From Gonapodya prolifera JEL478 (lineage: Eukaryota > Monoblepharomycota > Monoblepharidomycetes > Monoblepharidales > Gonapodyaceae), in contig KQ965789.1 in assembly GCA_001574975.1 (NCBI GenBank), positions 69,182 to 133,181 of the forward strand: a stretch of DNA of 64,000 nucleotides, written 5' to 3'. Every line of letters begins with the position of its first letter. The first letter of the stretch is position 1. The notes beneath the pieces were generated by a model. The model worked only from the letters and a program-made list of their open reading frames with translations. It ran no database searches and had not been told where the DNA came from. The translations under genes and the position numbers were made by a program. Shown here piece after piece: positions 1 to 10,808 of the stretch.

Positions 1-1267
1 GACACGCTGGGTGGATTTGTTCGTTATCAGGGTAAGAATAATGTTCAATGAGGTTGGAAACTTACGCGAACATTTGTGTTGATCTGGTGAGACGACGATG
101 CTCACAAGCCATGTCTCGATATGCAAGGTACATTGCACCTTTCCATAGATGTAGTCAGCAAATATCGTCAAGTGAAAGCTACAAGCCTTGCACGTACCAA
201 ATGTCCAGTTAACTTCCGGCATGGCGTGGTCTTTGGCTCATTTATCGCAGATTAGCCTGGCTTCTGTCCTTTGCTCGTCTGTAAGAAGATTAGGTATGTA
301 GTCCGAGCCTTTGGCCGTCCAGAGGTCCCTAAGGTGTTGCTGAAATGCAGTTCGGCTGTTGTGATAACAGTTTATGGTTAGGCTGACCTTTGTCTCACTT
401 GGAGTTCTCAACACTGCGGCACGCCTTGACTTCTATGAGTTTGGTCTTGAAGTCAATCTTGGTGATGTCCGACGACTGGGACGATGCCTGTGAGTCGTTT
501 ACGGTCAGGACGGATCCGCTGATATGCTGCAGCGTCTTGCAGGGCAATGAGGGGCCAGATTAGTGGTGATCTATGCACTCACCGCGGACATACGTACGTT
601 CTCTTTGTCGCAATGTCACAGTTGACCATGTTGTCCTAAACGTCGTCCAGTTTGCGCCGTATGTGGCTCTATTTAGTGATGTAAATGTTAGTTGTCTTTC
701 AATTTGTAACGTACGTTCCCACCTGGTCCAGCGATTGGAGGTAATTTCGAGTTCAATGATTGTAGAGTACTTGAATGATTTCCACATGTTGTTGTTTTGC
801 AATCTTGCCACTTCAAGTGAAGTGAATTGGGCGCCAGTGAGGCCTAGGTTTTGGAACGCTGTTATCTCGTCCGTCGAAGCTCCCGTTATCTCGCTGAATA
901 TCTTGGGGAGCTCTGATGCGCTTAAGGTGCATACGTGACTCTGATTACGCAGGTGGGGTATCGTTAGTGTTCCCGTGGGCATGTCGTCTTCGAAGAGACA
1001 CTTAACCTTGTCCGTTATAATGTCTCGATTTCGCTGAAGGATGTTATTTGTGTGCTCTGAACACCGTAGGTTGGTCTGTTCTTTATACAGGTCATGCCCG
1101 TGCCCATGCCCGTGTGCCCGTTGGCCGTTGGCCAAGGGACTGCGCCACCATGCCCTAACCCGGCGTTGGTAAATCAAGACACGGGCACTGTGGTCGCGAG
1201 ACGGGCACTGCGGCCAATCTTCGGGCATGACCGTGTTTCTCGAGCGGAACTCAAGATAGTCTGCCAT
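1..1267 (-). CDS. Unrecognised protein, 3' part cut by window edge
   Basis: I do not recognise this gene. A minus-strand reading frame opens at an ATG at 1265-1267 and stays open for about 230 codons to roughly 580, where a GTGAGT donor occurs (…RTYVRG|). Further coding-looking stretches in minus frames lie at about 550-415 (KTLQHISGSVLTVNDSQASS…), at 365-230 (…AFQQHLRDLWTAKGSDYIPN…) and from about 225 to the window start, the last holding an FGTCKACSFH cysteine/histidine cluster. The first exon is hydrophilic, with a low-complexity HGHGHGH stretch near residue 55 that comes from a (GGGCAC)n-type repeat. There is no signal peptide or membrane segment. The exon chain is inferred from frame and donor positions, and the true start could lie upstream of 1267. 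Some exons may belong to another transcript. Confidence 0.45.
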
Positions 1268-1810
1268 AGTACCGTCTTTGGAAGGTTGTTCTACCGACTT
1301 ACGTCAGTGCTAGCGTTTCGACAAGTGTACAACATCTGCCAATGTTACTGATTCCGTCTGTTGCCCGGGGCAGTGCAAGCGGCAGGGCCGGGCATAGTGT
1401 GCAGGGCATGGGCATCTAGTCTGCGTGTAACTCTCAGAAGTGGTGCGGCGGCTCCCGTTGCGTTGCGCGTGCGTGACAACTTCCCGTACTGGCAAGAATG
1501 ACACGTGTTGTGTCATGAAGGAAAATGCGAAGGCTTCGACCAAAGCTGAACCGCCCCGAACCTCGCCCTACATTATTGTGTGTTACTGTGTGGTAACTTT
1601 GTGCCAAACAACATATCACTAATACTGACATAAATACTGTACCGTATATGGTACTTTCTTACACGATCACGTCTTCCTTTTTAATTCGTATCCACCTCAG
1701 CGGGTACTGTTTCAATTAGATACTGCGGCCTTGGGATCACACACGGGCACACAAGCACACGGGCGCGGGCACGGGCACGGGCACGGGCACGGGCACACGG
1801 GCATGACAAA
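1088..1810. repeat. Inverted pair of (GGGCAC)n microsatellites
   Basis: Positions 1088-1125 carry the complement (GCCCGT repeats) and 1741-1806 carry the direct form (CGGGCA repeats, about seven units). Both share a GGGCACACGGGCATG edge, so the two form an inverted pair about 650 bp apart. A third interrupted set lies at 1180-1215. The left copy falls inside the coding frame of the minus-strand gene, where it encodes the HGHGHGH run. A short C-run with a single N follows the right copy at 1831-1850. From 1268 to 1900 I see no convincing gene, only short open frames. Confidence 0.6.
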
Positions 1811-1905
1811 TATACATGTAAAGACGCGAACCCCCCCCCCCNCGCCCCCCCACCCTCAAGTGAGACACAGAGCCCTTTCCCTTCAAACATTGAAACAGAG
1901 TCCAC

Positions 1906-2640
1906 GTGATATGTTTCCAAGTGTTTGTGTGCGAGCGTCGAAAATTACCTCGACCTAGCTCTCCCGGGACACCTGCCACTCCAGGACCGTGGGACCGTTT
2001 CTTGGACCTTGCTGGACCTTTGTCATACACGCTGTTTCCCTTGTGTCTCGCATCAATTCACATCGTATACCTCCGACGGTTCAGCAAATCGAGCAAACTC
2101 ATGGCGCGAGGATCCGGAAACAAAGACGGTGCGCAAATGAAACTGACATCATTCATGAACATAATTGGGAGGAGCATCGTCGTACTGTTATTGGAAGCAG
2201 GTTTCTTTGGAGCGAAGAACTTTATAGTGTGTTTTGTGTTGCTTTTGTGCTTGCCTTGAATGGTCTCGGCCGCAGGTGACACCTTCTACTTCACAAGCCT
2301 GCGGCTGCAAACCCCCTCGTATTTTTTATCTTTTATGGGGAGGTTAAGTTCTCCTCGATCTCGCCAACGTCATTTACATTCGGAGCTTTGCGTTGGACCT
2401 CCGATGGGCCTCTGCTAGCACCAATTCACACTCGGACGCAGAAACTCCGCGCAAACCCAGTAAAGACGCGCTGCTGAGAGACAGGGGACCAGGTGCTGCG
2501 TCAACGTGGGTTCCTCCGTTCGTCACCGGGTTTTCAGAAGGTGGATATTTTGGGACAACGAGGTATAGGCGCCATGGCTACTGTTGATATGTCGAGAGCT
2601 TTTAAATCGGCTTTGGACGACACAGATGCGCGAGTTGCAT
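1906..2640 (+). pseudogene. Seven-helix membrane protein paralogue A, broken remnant
   Basis: This is the first and most decayed member of a four-gene tandem family. Only the 3' half is recognisable. A helix-5-like segment (LFPLCLASIHIVYLRR) is followed by a polar loop, a helix-6-like segment (IIGRSIVVLLLEAGFFGAK) and, after a gap at about 2225-2310 that would be the conserved intron, the helix-7 exon (LLDLANVIYIRSFALDLRW). The tail ends with the family motif MSRAFKSALDD at about 2588-2624. Reading frame is lost at least twice: between FFIFYGE and LLDLANV near 2340, and between the PPFVTGF tail motif and MATVDMSRAF near 2550. The exons for helices 1-4 seen in the other copies are not found upstream. 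It is therefore read as a truncated, frameshifted copy. Sequencing error could explain one shift but not the missing 5' half. Confidence 0.65.
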
Positions 2641-2920
2641 GATCAAGAACAACTAGTGCTGGACTTCTGTGTTCAAACCGCGTTGTCCACTCTTTCATCT
2701 TGCCAAATCGTGCACTTATGCTAATCTACTGTAATGTCCGTTAAGCTTATACTTCATGAAAAGCAAGTCCACGTGTTACATACATACATCATATGAACCC
2801 GATTTTTGCACACTAATGGTACTTTTTACACGAAAACACTTCACAGTTTGTAGCTGAACAAGCGAATTCACGTGTTTTTCTGGATAAGAATTTACAACAG
2901 GACGTTGTATAAATCTTGGC

Positions 2921-4363
2921 ATGGGTTCCGCCAAGGCCATCAGATACCCTGCGAACGTGATCGCACCCTCAGCTGCTGCTCGATTGGCACACTGCCACCT
3001 TCACCTCGAGAATCGCTTCGATGGCAGCCGCAGCTCCAGCAGCTTTTCCCACCGTCGCACCGATCGACAGAGCACTTGACCTTTAGATGTAGACCAACGG
3101 CATCACTCTCTCTAGGTTCATCCAGGGTTGCGTCGGAACTTAACGAGCGATAGCACTGGGCGATCATTGTGATCCACTTCCAAAATCTAATGCTGTAGCT
3201 CAAGTTCTTGTCATCCTCATATTTCTCCAACAGAGCTCAAGGCTCGGTTCGGCATCCTTGGTAATGACCATGATTTCCTCGCTCAATGTGCTTACGGCCG
3301 ATTTCTTCGCCTGTAACCACTTTGTTGTGTAAGCTCCGTCCCCTTCAGTGTGTGCGTGCGAATCGGAAATGTGACCATATGTCGTCCTCCAAATATTGAT
3401 AAGTTCGTGATGCTTCTTTAACCAAGTCGGTGCTGTTCAGTTGGTACACGTATTTCTTACGTGTGTGGTTGCTTTCAAGGAGGAATCATGACCTGATGCT
3501 CTGTTCCGCGATACTGTTATTCGGGGCGATATGTTTAAACTTCATGTTCGTGTGACTTTCGTTTGATTCAACGTCTACGCGAAGTGGTAGAATCAACCAG
3601 GCAGAGGAGCCTCACTCTTTGTATTTGCAGGTACTGTGGAGCGGTCTCTGGATTACGTGGCCTCCCCCGACTTTGTGTCCAACACCGAAACCTAATGTGG
3701 ACGCTTCTCTTTACTCATTCGCAATAGAAGTATCATCAGCAGTGGTAATCGGCTATCCGGTTTATCTCGCGGCAATTCACATCTACTACCTTCGCAAGCG
3801 GAAAGTCATCTCTACGATGTCGTGGAAATCGTCAGTATCTGGGGTACGGCACTCCCGATCTGTAACAACCGGACCCGAGGAGCAACTCGGGACAATGCTG
3901 GACATGTTTAAGAAAAGTATTGTCGTTCTTATCCTCGAAGCTGTTTTGGCTACCATACAACGGGTGCTACTGAGTTGAGACGAGATTCCAGCAAAACATT
4001 ACCCTTTCGAATTTGCTTATTACGTCTGCCACGCAACCCCCTAACACCCCCCTAGAATTATTTTTCATCTTCGTATGGGCGGGGCAAATTCCTCTGGATC
4101 TGTGCTACATCATCTACGTGAAAAGTTTTGCTCGGGACCTGCGACGGGCAGCCGGGGAGTCCTCAAACATATCAACAGCTGTCAAAGGAGGCCTCGAGCA
4201 GCCAAGCAAATATCGCCTTGTCAAAAATGGAGCCAGGCCACCCGCGTCGGCGTTTCCTCAGGCGATCACAGGATTCCAGCCTGTGGATTTCCGGGTGGAG
4301 CGAGACGTCAACGCTTCAGCCGATATATCCCTGGCGTTCAGGTCTGCACTAAGGGATGACTGA
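2921..4363 (+). CDS. Seven-helix membrane protein paralogue B
   Basis: Second copy of the tandem family; function unknown, receptor-like topology inferred. Recognisable exons in order: a helix 1-2 exon at about 3190-3330 (AVAQVLVILIFLQQ, then SLVMTMISSLNVLTADFFAC, ending at a GTAAGC donor as in copy C); a helix 3-4 exon at 3430-3570 (FSWYTYFLRVWLLSRRN, then LMLCSAILLFGAICLNFMF); a helix 5-6 exon at 3640-3978 (VYLAAIHIYYLRKRK, then MFKKSIVVLILEAVLATIQR); and a helix-7/tail exon at 4040-4363 (FVWAGQIPLDLCYIIYVKSF, tail ITGFQPV…ISLAFRSAL, stop TGA). The ATG at 2921 gives a plausible N-terminus but lacks the clear LDLQIxTNG motif of copies C and D. The helix 3 exon start is eroded. It may be a functional diverged gene or an early pseudogene. 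Confidence 0.55.
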
Positions 4364-4777
4364 AAGAAGTACTTTTGCTTATCATCTGTGTTTGCATTGA
4401 TCAGGCTTACAATAACATATGCCCCGGAGTGGCCAGTGTTGAGTGCAACTCCAGGAATAAATAATTTATCAAAAGCAGGTCCGTAAGACTCATAGGCAGT
4501 CGACCAGCCTGGGTTCGAACCATCACTCTTGCGTTTTCAAATTGGCGTTTTCAATGAGAATCCCTCTTGCTTCCGCAGCGTATCCTTCTTCTTGACTCCA
4601 GCTCGAAAATAACGCACCAAATGCATGCAATGATTCATCGGCGTTTGCCTGCCTCTCAACCCAGGAGCAGGTTGCAAGATGATCGGCGAAGAATACCGCT
4701 ACCCTGGATCCACACCAAGCTACTTTCGCAAGCGGAACTTGATAAATTAAAACTCTCATCTCCAAGTGATTTTTTGG
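4364..4777. other. Intergenic spacer between paralogues B and C
   Basis: No gene is supported here. The spacer holds a tRNA-like A-box/B-box pair (TGGCCAGTG at about 4430 and GGTTCGAACC at about 4511), but no acceptor stem or T-stem can be paired. The 3' part presumably holds the promoter of the next paralogue. Confidence 0.5.
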
Positions 4778-6217
4778 ATGGCAAGTGACGGGTCGACCCT
4801 CGCTCCGCCGGATACCCTATTGGACTTGCAGATTTTTACGAACGGAACTCTCTTGGCGACGTTCGTATTCGTAAGCGGGTACACTCCGACATCCTTTGTC
4901 GCTACTCCCTTCTCGCTCATGTAAACTATTCCGCCTACTCCGTTGTACATCATTACCAACGCCAGCGCCGTCGCCCAACTCCTCATCATCTTCACCTTCC
5001 TCCAAGAATGGCGTGTACTACCGGCGCAGCTCAGATACATTGGCTTGTCGTCACTCGTGCCGACAATTATCTCATGCATGCTCGCAATGGCTGGGAATTG
5101 CTTGCAATGCTTTCCGTTTGTGGAGTGAGATTTGAGCTCATGTTATCGCGGCCTTCGCTGTATTGACCGTATCCACCATCTAGGGCTGGTTGCTACGTCT
5201 TTAATCTGGGCCGTTTCGCATCCTGGCTCACATACATACTCCGCATCTGGGCTCTCTCACGACACAACCGCATCGTCACCACGACCTGCTTCGGCGCACT
5301 TCTCGTCGCCATGGGTGCTCGAATATCGTAAGCATTTCGCTTTCTCGTTTTATGACTCAAAACGTACTGTATCATGCAAACATGTTCCGACCCAACCAAT
5401 TACCAATCTCAGCTTTTGCGCCACGTTGGTCTCGTACCGCTCCCTCCCACGGCTCTGCAACCCCGCCGGATCCAGCGACATCAACAGGCTCCTGAATATT
5501 CTCTCCGCCGTCCTGTCCGGTGCGTATTCTCTCTTCCTCGCCACCGTGCACTTATATTACCTGCATAAGAACGGTGCGGAAGCGCTCATCATGAGGCATA
5601 ACTCAGCGCGGAAGAATGCGAACTTGAACGGGGGAGCATCTGGTCCCGGAGCGCGAGCGCCAGCGCCTGGTTCAGGGCGAGTCGGGACGACAGTGCGAAT
5701 GATGGCGAAAGGCGTCATGGTCCTGGTTGTCGATGCCGTGATGCAGGTTTTTGGGAAGCTCACTGTGAGTCTTTATGTAAGGCAGCGACGTGCATTCCTC
5801 TGGAGATTGAGTGCATACCTTCCACACGCTCTTATATTTTACTCTTATATGATTCCATGTCATCGATTTCACCAGTCTCTCATTTCCCCATCATACTTCT
5901 TCATCACATTTTGGTCCGGTCAACTCCTCATCGACATCCTCTACGTCCTCTACATCAAGTCCTTTGCTGTCGAACTCCGTGGGTCCCCGCGCAACTATGA
6001 GCTTAATTTGTCCGCACCCGCTGGGGGCTGTCGCGGCACCCCTCCTCGCCCAGGAATAGGATCTCCCGAGAGTCCCGTCAAGTCTGGGTTCCCTGTCATG
6101 GTGACGGGGTTCGAGCCGCTCGGTGTTGTCACGGCGTTGGGACGTGGTGGAGATGGGGTGATGACGGTGCAGATGTCACGGGCGATCATGTCCGCGATGG
6201 GAGAGAGTGATTCATAG
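4778..6217 (+). CDS. Seven-helix membrane protein paralogue C
   Basis: Best preserved family member. The ATG at 4778 starts MASDGSTLAPPDTLLDLQIF, then TNG (a short N-terminus ending in a shared LDLQIxTNG motif). After an intron at about 4880-4955, the helix 1-2 exon reads AVAQLLIIFTFLQEWRVLPA and then LVPTIISCMLAMAGNCLQCF. After a second intron, the helix 3-4 exon at about 5185-5328 reads AGCYVFNLGRFASWLTYILR and then VTTTCFGALLVAMGARIS, ending at GTAAGC. The third exon, 5425-5765, carries helix 5 (LSGAYSLFLATVHLYYLHK), a long Ala/Gly/Pro loop, and helix 6 (MAKGVMVLVVDAVMQVFGKL). The last exon, about 5880-6217, carries helix 7 (FWSGQLLIDILYVLYIKSF) and a cytoplasmic tail with VTGFEP and MSRAIMSAM. 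Seven hydrophobic segments fit a GPCR-like plasma-membrane protein, but no DRY or NPxxY motif is visible. Family and ligand are unknown. Confidence 0.75.
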
Positions 6218-6377
6218 GCAATCCATGGAATCTTATTACATATTTTCGATCGTGATGCGACATTATTTGTTGCTTGTGGCCGATCCTTTCACGTCGCCAG
6301 AAGCATTATCCCGATCGGCGAATGCAGCCCTTATCATGTAATCACCGACTTTGCATCGCAGTCATTCCTCATATGAA

Positions 6378-7717
6378 ATGTCTTTCCCAGTGGTCGCTCC
6401 CCGGGACGATGCACTTGATCTCCAAATATGGACAAATGGGGTCGCGCTCTCGAGGCAGGCGTCAATTTCCTTTTCACACCATGGAAGTTCCACCGACCTG
6501 CTCACACTACCTCACCTTCTCCAATAATACAGCGCAGTGGCCCAAATTCTTATCCTTTTCATATTTATGCAAGAGTGGAATGTGCTCCCCGCGCAGTTAA
6601 AGTGGCTCCCGCTCAGCTCCCTTTTGATCGTGCTTGCTTCAAATATCAGCGCGCTTCTCGGGAATGTTTACGCTTGCTACCCCTTTATCGAGTGAGTCGG
6701 CGAGATGGCGCAGCAAATGTTTATTGCTTTAGTTTTGTAATCCTCCAATTACCTTGTGCAATCACTGTGCAAATGTCTCGATCACACTAGAGCGGGTTGC
6801 TACCTCTTCCAAATCGGAAAATTTTGCGGAGCGCTAACATATATTCTTCGAGTTTGGATGCTTTCGGGTCGAAACCTATACCTGGCAACTATTGGGCTTG
6901 TCATGCTCATCGGCTCCACAGCAACCTCAATTGGGTAGGTGCATCTCTGACAGGATTGACCAAGCAGTGCGAGCGCTTTTTATGATGTTTATACTTTGTT
7001 GCAGGTACTGTGTTACTGTGACTTCATTTCGTGGTTTGCCGCGAATGTGCATTCCAATCCCACGTCTCTCGGTCAATAACGATCTATTCCTGGCGACAGC
7101 GTACACTACACCATTAACCTATACATATCTGGCTCTCGCTCACGTATACTGCCTCCGGCAAGTCAAGGCATCCAGGCGCTATGCGTCAAACATGAAGCTT
7201 CGTAGCTTCCTTGACATGTTTGCAAAAAGCGTTTTGGTCATCTTCCTGGAAGGATTCAGCATACTTGCCCAAAGAGTGGTCGTGAGTCTTGATCTGTTGA
7301 ATGTTGGCTAGCCGTGGGCTGCCCAAGCCCTGTGCCTTTCAAAACTGATCTCCTCCAACGTCCAAGACTGCAAGCGATCCCCAGCACTTCTTTGTTGCTC
7401 TTTGGGCTGGTCACATTGTTCTTGATCTTGCCTATGTGGTTTATATCAAAGGCTTTGCTGTCGATCTACGGCAATCATCCCAACAGGACTTCCTCGTACG
7501 GAACGACAATTCACTTCCCCCTTCCCCGGAACACCAGCCAGACCGGGGCGGCGACAAGGTCCATAAAGACGGTGCGAAAACTGACAAATTGCACAAGTTT
7601 CCCCTGGTGACCGGTTTCCAACCTGTCAGTACTGGAATCACAGACCGACCGGTTCTAATGACGGCAGACATGTCCCGAGCATTTCGATCTGCCTTCGACC
7701 CTTCCGAGGAACAGTAA
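6378..7717 (+). CDS. Seven-helix membrane protein paralogue D
   Basis: Fourth and last copy, same exon plan as copy C. The ATG at 6378 opens MSFPVVAPRDDALDLQIW, then TNG. The intron ends at a CAG near 6535 and the next exon reads AVAQILILFIFMQEWNVLPA and then LSSLLIVLASNISALLGNVY, ending at GTGAGT near 6692. The helix 3-4 exon (about 6789-6935) reads AGCYLFQIGKFCGALTYILR and then LATIGLVMLIGSTATSI, ending at GTAGGT. The helix 5-6 exon (about 7005-7280) reads PLTYTYLALAHVYCLRQ and then MFAKSVLVIFLEGFSILAQR. The final exon holds helix 7 (LWAGHIVLDLAYVVYIKGF) and the tail LVTGFQPV … DMSRAFRSAF, stop TAA at 7715. Intron positions match copy C, showing duplication of a whole intron-bearing gene. 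No frame breaks are seen across the recognisable exons. Confidence 0.75.
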
Positions 7718-8403: not shown

Positions 8404-10808
8404 CTAAGCAGTTTTGTTTTTCGGGTGTTTGGAAACATCCGATACGGTGTTCGCCGTCAACTGTGCCCACAGTCCGAGAAGACCAACGGCGCACCACACC
8501 GACGTTAAAGCGAGTGGCGCGAACGCCCACGCAGGAGCGAATATGGGGAGAATGAACTCAGAGAGCGTGATCACGATGGGGAATGCCCGGGTATGGAGAC
8601 GAGTGAGGAGAGGGAGTTGGGCAGTGATCGTCGGTGCCCCTCTGGAATTCTAAGATTGAGATTGACGCCGCGGATAGTAGAGCTTGATAGTAACTCACTT
8701 CGCGAACAGGTCTTGTGTGAGAAGCATGTATGCGGCTAGAATCGTGAACTTGATCAGGGTTTCTAAGCAGTAGCGAGAGTATTCATCGTTGGGGCGACTC
8801 TATACAAAATTATCTTCACGACAAGCTCTCACCATTCGACCGATGAAGAAGCGGGAATAAACTGTAGTAGGATATGAGGTTCATCGGTTGCACGAAACTC
8901 TGGTAAGCCTGATCGATCGAAGCAAGTAACCTGAATATCGAAGGGTACAAAACTCGATGTCAAGCCGTGACACTTGTCCCAATGATCACATGCACTCACA
9001 ATAGCGGTACCGTTACCAGCATGACTGCCTTTTCGTGGACATGCCACCCAAAGATGAAGGAAGCGAATGCACACGAGACCAGCGACGCCAGAAAGACGAC
9101 CTGAGGGCGTTGTGAACTGGGCGTGGGGGAAATGTTTTTCCCTCGACCAGAAGACAGCCAGAGGTGGACAAGAGATGGCTATAGTACCGAGCCGAATCAA
9201 ACGCAGAACAATTTGGATGGACGACGCTTTTTCTCACCATCATTGCCACCAACGTCGCCACCACCGTCACACCAGGTCTCACGTCTCCCAAAACCGCGAA
9301 TTTGACGTCCTCGACCACCCCTCGTGTCGCACTCCGCATGGCTTCCGCGTCGATTGGGAGTCGAAGCAGTCTGAACGCAAGGGCTAGGGCTCTGTCCAAG
9401 GCTACGTAGAGCGCCCAGAAATTGGGGGCCCAGTACGCGTGGACAAGACCGCGCCGGAAGGGGAAGAGTCGTGAGATGATTTGGGAGAGGTGGGCGAGCG
9501 GGGCCAATGGGGTCGATGCAAGGAATGGGAGGAAGGAAACGCAAAATACGGCGAGGACAGAAGAGGCGAGGAGAAGGAAGTTTGGGAAATCAAAAGTCGA
9601 GAGGAAGGTCTTCAAGGATTTGAGAGGGTCTGGGTGTGGTATTTCGGTGGGTTGTATATTCGGCCGTTTTTCACGCGACGCAAATACCTTTGCTCTGTGT
9701 GGCAACACCCGCCCCCTTTTTGCCATTCGTCGTGGAGTCCGACCCAAAGCAGAAGTGTCGCAGCAAATAAATGAAGTAAGCCGGTGCAAGGTACAGGAAA
9801 ATGTGCTTGAAGTTGAGCAGCCCTGCAAAAATTGCTCCACCCAGTAAGTCGTTTCCCTGAAAGGAAACATAGAAGACGAGTTGACAGGTGCACTAATGTC
9901 CGTCGGTAATCTTCGTGGCTCACCTCCATAATCTCAGCAACACTCCACAGGAGAACTCCGAAGAGAAATCCGTTGTACTGGAAGTGTATAGAGTCAACGA
10001 TAAGAAACCCAGGGTTCAGGAACGTTGCTCCGAGAAGAAGATTCCGCTTCGCAGACGTCGTTTCCAAAGGCAAGACTTTCGGGGAATAGTACAGCCTTCA
10101 AAAATAAGCCCCCAAAGACTTCAGAAAGCGGTGAGGCGAAGAGCATCCAACACAACGCACTTGATCAGGGCTCCCAGCAGCACGACCTCGCTCAGGATGA
10201 CAGTCATCCGTTGCGCCACGACAGTCGTCCAGCTTTCGTACCCGTCAGCAGAGAGCTCGAGCGTCCTCCAGTCCCCCGCGAGCCACGCTACGGGAGCGAC
10301 AATTGTGTGGGCTAGCGTCCATTCGAAGAAGGCAAAGAAGGGTGGGTAGTCGAGGGTCCATTGAGAGGTTTCCTGATTCGAATCAAGGTGCGTACGTTTA
10401 CAAGCGATCGGAAGGGAACGCGAACACGAAAATTACCTCGTAGTACCACGATTTGAGAGGGAGATTGTATGTAATTGCCAGCCAGTTGCGGTGAACCTCG
10501 AAATCCGTGGACCGACTGAATTTCGGTCGGTGTTAGAGCGGGAAGGGACCGCATCGCGACCTTTCCTACGGTCGGAAACATGAAACATACTATGCGGGAA
10601 AGAGGAGGACCTTGATGGCGGTGCTGACACAGAAGAGCGTGGCAATGAAGGTCCAGTCCGGTTTGACCGTACGAAGTGGCGATTCCTGTGATGATGAGCT
10701 GGAGGAATCAAAGCTGAAAGCTCAAGCGATTGTGACTGAGAGCTTTTCTGGCGTCGAAACGTACGATTCGCCGGGGGAGCGAGGTGGGGATGGTGATGTG
10801 CATGCCAT
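8404..10808 (-). CDS. ALG8: ALG8 dolichyl-P-glucose glucosyltransferase
   Basis: ER multi-pass enzyme (GT57 family) that adds the second glucose to the lipid-linked oligosaccharide (Glc1Man9GlcNAc2-PP-dolichol to Glc2) before N-glycosylation. The start ATG at 10808 gives a short cytosolic N-terminus and helix 1 ([20 protein letters not shown]). The family luminal motif follows as [16 protein letters not shown], with the conserved Asp, then [11 protein letters not shown] and [16 protein letters not shown]. Further hallmarks in order are [20 protein letters not shown] (about 9990), [20 protein letters not shown] (about 9440) and, near 9040, the FGWHVHEKA-type segment. The last exon, about 8640-8404, holds hydrophobic helices and ends …[11 protein letters not shown], a lysine-rich cytosolic tail. 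At least six introns interrupt it. The [10 protein letters not shown] and [14 protein letters not shown] motifs separate ALG8 from ALG6. The SSNA1-like gene lies just downstream. Confidence 0.9.

What the first reader, a model, noticed from the sequence alone, without database searches (positions are those of the whole stretch)
1906..7717. Tandem array of an unnamed seven-helix membrane protein family
Four head-to-tail paralogues share the same exon plan: exon 1 with an LDLQIxTNG motif, one exon for helices 1-2 (AVAQxLIxFxFxQEW), one for helices 3-4 (AGCYxFxxGxFxxxLTYxLR), one for helices 5-6, one for helix 7 (FWAGQIxLDLxYVxYIKSFA) plus a tail. The tails are divergent except for VTGFxPV and a terminal MSRAFxSA motif, the pattern expected of a conserved cytoplasmic interaction site. 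I cannot match this to rhodopsin, Ste2/Ste3, cAMP, Pth11 or DUF6533/6534-type families: no DRY or NPxxY is visible. A lineage-specific receptor family expanding by tandem duplication would be a good candidate for zoospore sensing. The function is inference; the repeated architecture is seen.
Basis: partly seen in the sequence, partly recalled or inferred. Interest (0 to 1): 0.82.

Follow-up and report, generated by a model that had tools for sequence, protein, structure and literature searches.

The report
Unnamed seven-helix receptor-like protein family
A fungus of a flagellated lineage carries dozens of copies of a seven-helix membrane protein that the protein-family libraries searched do not recognise; it looks like a sensory receptor family, but two of the four copies first noticed are broken and the receptor role is not proven.

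Summary
Copies C (4778-6217) and D (6378-7717) are intact five-exon genes for 7-TM proteins. Copies A and B are decayed: B has two stops in exon 1, a third stop and frameshifts; A is a 3' half with a stop and frameshifts, abutting a dispersed repeat that ends near 1893. The array continues upstream of the window. Exon sizes (159; 144/147) and phases are conserved; close pairs give dN/dS 0.09-0.25. Pfam, NCBIfam and PDB sequence searches gave no match above cut-off. Charges read N-out/C-in, with four invariant cysteines on the predicted outer side, an invariant TM3 arginine and TM7 DxxYxxYxxxF. A weak six-helix AlphaFold model has GPCRs as 10 of 19 PDB hits, none significant (best E 1.9). The genome is fungal, has IFT57 and at least five G-alpha loci. 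Best reading: an orphan GPCR-type sensory receptor family, expanding by birth and death in a fungus of a flagellated lineage. Coupling, ligand and expression are untested; other eukaryote genomes could not be searched.

The parts
1..1893 (.). dispersed repeat (mobile-element-like) that abuts and probably truncated copy A
   Evidence: DNA search of own genome: C51 92% over 1-1427, C55 88% over 959-1890 and 94% over 1-147; the match from 1601 stops at ~1893. The 247-aa ORF 560-1303 on the - strand has no Pfam match at E up to 0.1
1894..2642 (+). copy A: 3' remnant (TM5-7 and tail), one stop, two frameshifts; pseudogene
   Evidence: spliced alignment to upstream copy E1; frame reading
3042..4363 (+). 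copy B: five-exon remnant with two stops in exon 1 (LDL*M*TNG), a third stop and two frameshifts; pseudogene
4778..4860 (+). gene C exon 1 (N-terminus, start of TM1)
   Evidence: donor GTTCGT is weak
4966..5124 (+). gene C exon 2 (TM1-TM2, 159 nt)
5184..5327 (+). gene C exon 3 (TM3-TM4, 144 nt)
5413..5764 (+). gene C exon 4 (TM5, long ICL3, TM6)
5876..6217 (+). gene C exon 5 (TM7, tail, stop)
   Evidence: 359-aa protein
6378..6454 (+). gene D exon 1 (N-terminus), GC-AG intron follows
   Evidence: GC donors recur at this intron in three other of the 20 models
6533..6691 (+). gene D exon 2 (TM1-TM2, 159 nt)
6791..6934 (+). gene D exon 3 (TM3-TM4, 144 nt)
7005..7281 (+). gene D exon 4 (TM5-ICL3-TM6)
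7367..7717 (+). gene D exon 5 (TM7, tail with VTGFQPV and MSRAFRSA, stop)
   Evidence: 335-aa protein

Best explanation
The intact members are cell-surface seven-helix sensory receptors of GPCR type, forming an undescribed family in a fungus of a flagellated lineage. A short acidic N-terminus and three outer loops, pinned by disulfides among four invariant cysteines, would frame a binding pocket for an external small molecule or peptide. Binding would shift TM6/TM7 relative to the invariant TM3 arginine, and the basic inner loops (ICL2, ICL3) would engage one of the heterotrimeric G proteins. The tail carries adaptor-type short motifs: in most clean tails outside the window's subfamily and C40, a Yxx[LIM] box that could set trafficking or endocytosis. 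Copy number evolves by birth and death: tandem and segmental duplication, then decay and repeat insertion, as in chemoreceptor families. Shown: gene structure, family size, purifying selection, conserved residues, decay of A and B. Predicted: topology. Inferred: surface location, disulfide pairing, GPCR mechanism, G-protein coupling, chemosensory role.
For: Seven hydrophobic segments in the family alignment and N-out/C-in charges: mean K+R is 0.15 in the N-terminus, 1.25 ICL1, 0.05 ECL1, 1.75 ICL2, 4.25 ICL3, 9.2 tail. All four invariant cysteines (C69, C77, C124, C137) fall on the predicted outer side, one at the top of TM3 and one in ECL2, as in many GPCRs (recalled); R94, W96, D234, Y240 and F244 are also invariant in 20 of 20. 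ICL3 (14-45 aa) and the tail are the long variable parts. 49 places: 22 clean (23 with C2 by its own model) and 26 broken or partial. dN/dS is 0.09-0.25 in 15 of the 16 pairs above 60% identity; dS was undefined in one. At least five G-alpha loci by spacing. 7tm_3 receptors also present (4 places over the cut-off). IFT57 and Fungal_trans show a fungus of a ciliated lineage. Foldseek of the six-helix model: the first three hits and 10 of 19 in PDB are, by entry title, GPCRs.
Against: No Foldseek hit is significant (best E 1.9, probability at most 0.33, TM at most 0.34). In the viral library 1 of 30 hits is a named GPCR, and none is significant. The model has mean pLDDT 68 and pTM 0.53, lacks TM7 and holds intron-derived loops. 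No DRY (0 of 20). No sequence match to a GPCR family. Simple hydropathy counts give seven peaks in only 5 of 20 proteins (six in 9, five in 5, four in 1); TM3 is the weakest helix (mean KD 0.99). Divergence among close paralogues does not single out the outer loops: ECL2 differs at 0.30 in the C22/C23 set but 0.20 in C17/C96, where TM4 (0.37), ICL2 (0.40, 15 sites) and ICL3 (0.35) lead. No expression, ligand or coupling data.
Confidence: 0.55

Rival explanations
1. A 7-TM transporter or other membrane protein without G-protein signalling, expanded for nutrient or detoxification needs.
For: Buried charged residues (TM3 R94 and TM7 D234 invariant, TM6 D204 nearly so) and the lack of GPCR motifs or a significant fold match fit a transporter as well. 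[quoted passage not shown]
Against: No PQ repeat (0 of 20). No transporter family match above cut-off (MgtE in 3 of 20, best E 0.46). Four invariant cysteines on the predicted outer side and the long variable ICL3 and tail are more receptor-like.
Confidence: 0.25
2. A 7-TM ligand-gated ion channel of the insect odorant/gustatory receptor type (7TMIC).
For: 7TMICs form large chemoreceptor families, and relatives have been reported from unicellular eukaryotes (starts of the abstracts of PMC7746228 and PMC9998090 in the listing).
Against: 7TMICs have an inside N-terminus (recalled); here the charges point to N-out. No Pfam match.
Confidence: 0.05
3. An ER/Golgi household membrane family (EOS1-like or other) with no sensing role.
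For: EOS1 is the Pfam name matched by most members, 5 of 20 (best E 0.0064).
Against: In the best of six members rescanned it scores 14.4 bits against a cut-off of 23, over a 66-residue hydrophobic stretch. Dozens of copies with about half decayed are not what one expects of a household gene (inference).
Confidence: 0.1

Closest known systems
Fungal GPCR classes I-XVII (PMC12842992 and PMC13308352, passages read)
   Same: seven helices, predicted N-out/C-in, long ICL3 and tail, expansion as for Pth11-like receptors
   Different: no match to a GPCR model in Pfam-A scans at E up to 10. The passage seen lists Pfam models for classes 5-15; those of the other classes are recalled. Sequence-level test only: a distant relation is not excluded
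DUF6534 putative GPCRs of Basidiomycota (PMC12842992, section 20 read)
   Same: expanded orphan 7-TM family proposed as GPCRs in fungi
   Different: no DUF6534 or DUF6533 match at E up to 10. The consensus set in that paper is confined to Agaricomycotina; the ten largest unknown clusters were domain-checked
Class B1 GPCRs (PTH1R, VIP1R, GCGR)
   Same: 9 of 19 Foldseek hits of the partial model, ranks 1-3 included
   Different: not significant (E 1.9 or worse); no extracellular hormone-binding domain (N-terminus 19-29 aa); no 7tm_2 match
Class A (rhodopsin-like) GPCRs
   Same: cysteines at the top of TM3 and in ECL2; TM7 Y(x)6F after DxxY (DxxYxxYxxxF in 20 of 20)
   Different: no DRY (0 of 20), no 7tm_1 match, TM7 D in place of NP

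Membership tests
GPCR (general) | seven transmembrane helices | tested here: inconclusive
   seven segments in the family alignment, TM3 weakest (KD 0.99); single-protein peak counts 4-7, seven in 5 of 20; the model shows TM1-TM6 as long helices; the TM5-7 job did not return
GPCR (general) | N-terminus outside, C-terminus inside | tested here: inconclusive
   positive-inside pattern agrees; no experiment
GPCR (general) | GPCR fold | tested here: inconclusive
   10 of 19 PDB hits are GPCRs but none significant, best E 1.9; 1 of 30 in the viral library
GPCR (general) | activates a heterotrimeric G protein | not testable with these tools
   G-alpha genes are present; coupling needs an experiment
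Class A GPCR (7tm_1) | Pfam PF00001 match | tested here: not met
Class A GPCR (7tm_1) | DRY at the end of TM3 and NPxxY in TM7 | tested here: not met
   DRY-type 0 of 20; TM7 is DxxYxxYxxxF in 20 of 20; an [ND]PxxY string matched somewhere in 2 of 20, place not checked
Known fungal GPCR classes I-XVII | match to the class's Pfam model | tested here: not met
   20 members scanned against Pfam-A at E up to 10: 10 weak names, none a GPCR family. For class 14 the listed model is the outer CFEM domain, so this does not test its 7-TM part
DUF6533/DUF6534 7-TM proteins | Pfam match | tested here: not met
Microbial rhodopsin | retinal lysine in TM7 | tested here: not met
   a lysine occurs in the TM7 stretch of 2 of 20 only
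PQ-loop 7-TM (class IV) | two PQ motifs | tested here: not met
   0 of 20

The most novel reading that the evidence does not exclude
A new class of fungal G-protein-coupled chemoreceptors, expanded to about two dozen intact genes and a comparable number of relics in a fungus of a flagellated lineage, and so the candidate attractant receptors of its zoospores. Its tail would use a tyrosine-based adaptor motif plus a proline box in many members and a different motif pair in the array of this window.
Probability: 0.35. Interest if true: 0.75.

Novelty: new variant of a known kind. Interest (0 to 1): 0.5.

Why it matters
How zoospores of flagellated fungi find food and hosts is an open question; [quoted passage not shown] A large, unnamed, receptor-like family with clear sequence landmarks (C69/C77/C124/C137, TM3 R94, TM7 DxxYxxYxxxF, tail Yxx[LIM] box) gives a concrete set of genes to test. 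If it is a receptor family, fungal GPCR lists built from known classes can miss whole families.

Tried and rejected
Tried without result: Pfam, NCBIfam and PDB sequence searches (sub-threshold names such as EOS1, and one PDB hit, DEPDC5, E 0.042); viral contigs with the family profile (28 pattern matches, none a relative); Rfam on the window (none at gathering score); VIA-align (not installed). My first genome search used an uninformative pattern and only gave the window's place. Papers: six searches listed no paper that names this family. I read passages of PMC13308352, PMC12842992 (plus its section 20), PMC3251606 and PMC12115818; all others were seen only as listings.

Rejected: that the 'introns' inside ICL3 of my first models are introns. 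Most are multiples of three, open, and sit in a variable loop, so I merged these as coding (not in C42, where the gap is 89 nt). Alignment A1 was built before that, so its ICL3 is incomplete. Rejected: reading A and B as genes. Rejected: alignments A2 and A5, in which MAFFT misplaced rows. A4 was looked at row by row only after its model and the PDB search and is sound.

Limits: gene models come from a home-made spliced aligner without transcripts, so some single frameshifts (C11, C29, C40_156730 with an assembly gap) may be model or assembly errors. A1 holds 20 of 49 places: those scoring over 700 without stop, frameshift or N and with at most 7 exons. E1 was checked against its own model. 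The census covers only places fetched; one search lists further exon matches (C17:358-359k, C110:81k, C72:93k, C63, C77) that were not modelled, and its list was cut.
Full report
What was claimed and what is there. The window is C59:69182-133181 of a 47.56-Mb, 207-contig assembly. Genes C (4778-6217, 359 aa) and D (6378-7717, 335 aa) are complete: ATG, five exons, stop, no internal stop or frameshift. D's first intron starts with GC; three other of the 20 models (C89_51585, C17_340562, C96_129676) also have a GC donor there. C's first donor (GTTCGT) is weak.

Copies A and B are not genes any more. B has two stops in exon 1 (LDL*M*TNG), a third stop and two frameshifts, and by eye the AG before its TM1-2 exon reads AA. 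A has only the TM5-7 part and the tail, with a stop and two frameshifts. Among the queries tried it is most like an intact copy (E1) that lies upstream of the window at C59:66261-67533 (71% DNA identity over 271 bases). The window's first ~1893 bases are a dispersed repeat found again on C51 (92% over 1427 bases) and C55. Its edge meets the start of A, and an N-terminal fragment of the family (E2, C59:67888-68154) lies on the far side. The simplest reading is one E1-like gene split by an insertion and missing its exon 3; this is an inference.

How big the family is. Exon-wise searches with C, D and a member of the main subfamily gave 111, 98 and 160 matches in this genome (E up to 1, 1 and 0.1). 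I took 31 segments on 23 contigs, chosen because they matched (joined; of the window only its first 10 kb). A profile built from 21 clean second-pass models found 49 places with scores of 207-995; 62 reversed-sequence controls reached at most 144. Re-aligning each place to its best full-length relative leaves 22 of 49 clean over most of their length (E1 against its own model). C2 makes 23 by its own model, although one search put one frameshift in it with a distant query. The other 26 have stops, frameshifts or missing parts; a few of the single frameshifts may be assembly or model errors.

Gene structure and selection. In the 20 full models exon 2 is 159 nt in 19 (in the other it is fused to exon 1) and exon 3 is 144 or 147 nt in 19 (in the other it is fused to exon 4). 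Where the introns are present their phases are 2, 2, 2, 0 in the models printed, save single odd sites (C29, C130). Three models (two on C40, and C3) have an extra intron inside the TM7 exon. Sixteen pairs exceed 60% identity; dN/dS is 0.09-0.25 in 15 (0.11, 0.09 and 0.12 in the three closest; 0.17 for D against C89_51585) and undefined in one. So the proteins have been under purifying selection. The tree (42 rows, broken rows included) shows twelve pairs of nearest rows on different contigs (C22/C23 three, C17/C96 four, C59/C89 two, C40/C130, C42/C11, C72/C110). By six of these have one clean and one broken partner, four are both clean and two both broken.

What the protein looks like. The alignment of 20 clean cores (A1) has 19 invariant columns: Q11 N15 F32 C69 P71 C77 T90 R94 W96 L98 C124 R131 P134 C137 H168 F223 D234 Y240 F244. 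Mean K+R per segment is 0.15 N-terminus, 1.25 ICL1, 0.05 ECL1, 1.75 ICL2, 2.7 ECL2 (29 aa), 4.25 ICL3, 1.5 ECL3, 9.2 tail, which points to N-out/C-in. All four invariant cysteines then lie outside. Simple hydropathy peak counts are less clear: seven in 5 of 20, six in 9, five in 5, four in 1; TM3 is the weakest helix. GPCR class A motifs are absent (DRY 0 of 20); all 20 have the R-x-W-x-L motif in TM3 and DxxYxxYxxxF in TM7 (Y or F allowed at the Y sites). Among close paralogues the outer loops do not stand out consistently: in the C22/C23 set the N-terminus (0.39), tail (0.38), ICL3 (0.31) and ECL2 (0.30) differ most; in C17/C96 it is ICL2 (0.40, only 15 sites), TM4 (0.37), ICL3 (0.35) and the tail (0.32), with ECL2 at 0.20.

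Tails. Of 18 clean tails outside that subfamily and C40, 14 carry [DEQR]Y[VIF]x[LIM] (for example GPDYVSIDG, EIDYVALDP, VQYVELDG) and 9 a proline box (for example EMPSPF, DMPLPV). Two thousand shuffles of the same tails gave means of 0.14 and 0.06 and maxima of 3 and 2. The patterns were chosen after looking at the tails, so the shuffle is a generous control. Y-x-x-bulky is the form of clathrin-adaptor sorting signals (recalled); whether it works so here is untested.

Known families. Two proteins at E up to 10 gave no Pfam match. For the 20 members of A1 ten weak names came up, EOS1 most often (5 members, best E 0.0064; 14.4 bits against a cut-off of 23 in the best of six rescanned), none a GPCR family. 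NCBIfam gave four chance-level names, the PDB profile search nothing, and two single-sequence PDB searches one hit, DEPDC5 at E 0.042. Published lists name 17 fungal GPCR classes (passages). PMC12842992 says that 141,666 unassigned fungal 7-TM proteins fell into 1969 clusters, of which the ten largest were domain-checked, so this family could sit there unnoticed. My six paper searches listed no paper that names it.

Fold. I used the one member (C2) whose TM1-TM6 lie in one frame through two introns. The model (20-row alignment A4, checked afterwards) has six long helices, mean pLDDT 68, pTM 0.53. Foldseek in PDB gave 19 hits, none significant; ranks 1-3 are PTH1R, and by title 10 of 19 are GPCRs (seven PTH1R chains, VIP1R, glucagon receptor, adenosine A1 receptor), E 1.9 or worse and TM at most 0.34. 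In the viral library none of 30 hits is significant and 1 is a named GPCR. I take this as a hint only. A second job on TM5-TM7 of gene C did not return.

Setting. The genome has 72 Fungal_trans matches, IFT57, at least five G-alpha loci by spacing, four 7tm_3 places over the cut-off and one borderline 7tm_1 place with four stops inside. It is thus a fungus of a ciliated lineage with G-protein genes; 'chytrid' in the narrow sense, and zoospores themselves, were not tested.

Verdict. The repeated architecture is real, but two of the four copies are relics, and the interesting object is a genome-wide 7-TM family that I could not match to a named one. A GPCR-type sensory receptor is the best single reading (0.55), with a transporter-like role the main rival (0.25).

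Noticed in passing
window 1-1893: Dispersed repeat present on C51 (92%) and at two places on C55; carries GGGCAC-type simple repeats and a 247-aa ORF (560-1303, -) without Pfam match.
   Followed up: partly
family loci on paired contigs C22/C23, C17/C96, C40/C130, C59/C89, C42/C11, C72/C110: Members occur as nearest pairs on different contigs, dS 0.31-0.56 in the three closest; some Fungal_trans matches also come in near-equal pairs (C24/C147, C72/C110). This may be a whole-genome or segmental duplication, or a hybrid genome.
   Followed up: partly
C59:66261-67533 and C59:67888-68154 (outside the window): Upstream continuation of the array: an intact copy E1 and an N-terminal fragment E2.
   Followed up: yes
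C136, about 59.9-63.0 kb: Two G-alpha genes appear to lie side by side; G-alpha matches over the cut-off fall at five loci by spacing in this genome.
   Followed up: no
C89:51585-52645: A member with all helix exons intact but a stop right after TM7, so without the tail.
   Followed up: no
window 9013-9933, - strand: Neighbour ORF matches ALG6/ALG8 glucosyltransferase (PF03155, E 7.2e-31).
   Followed up: no
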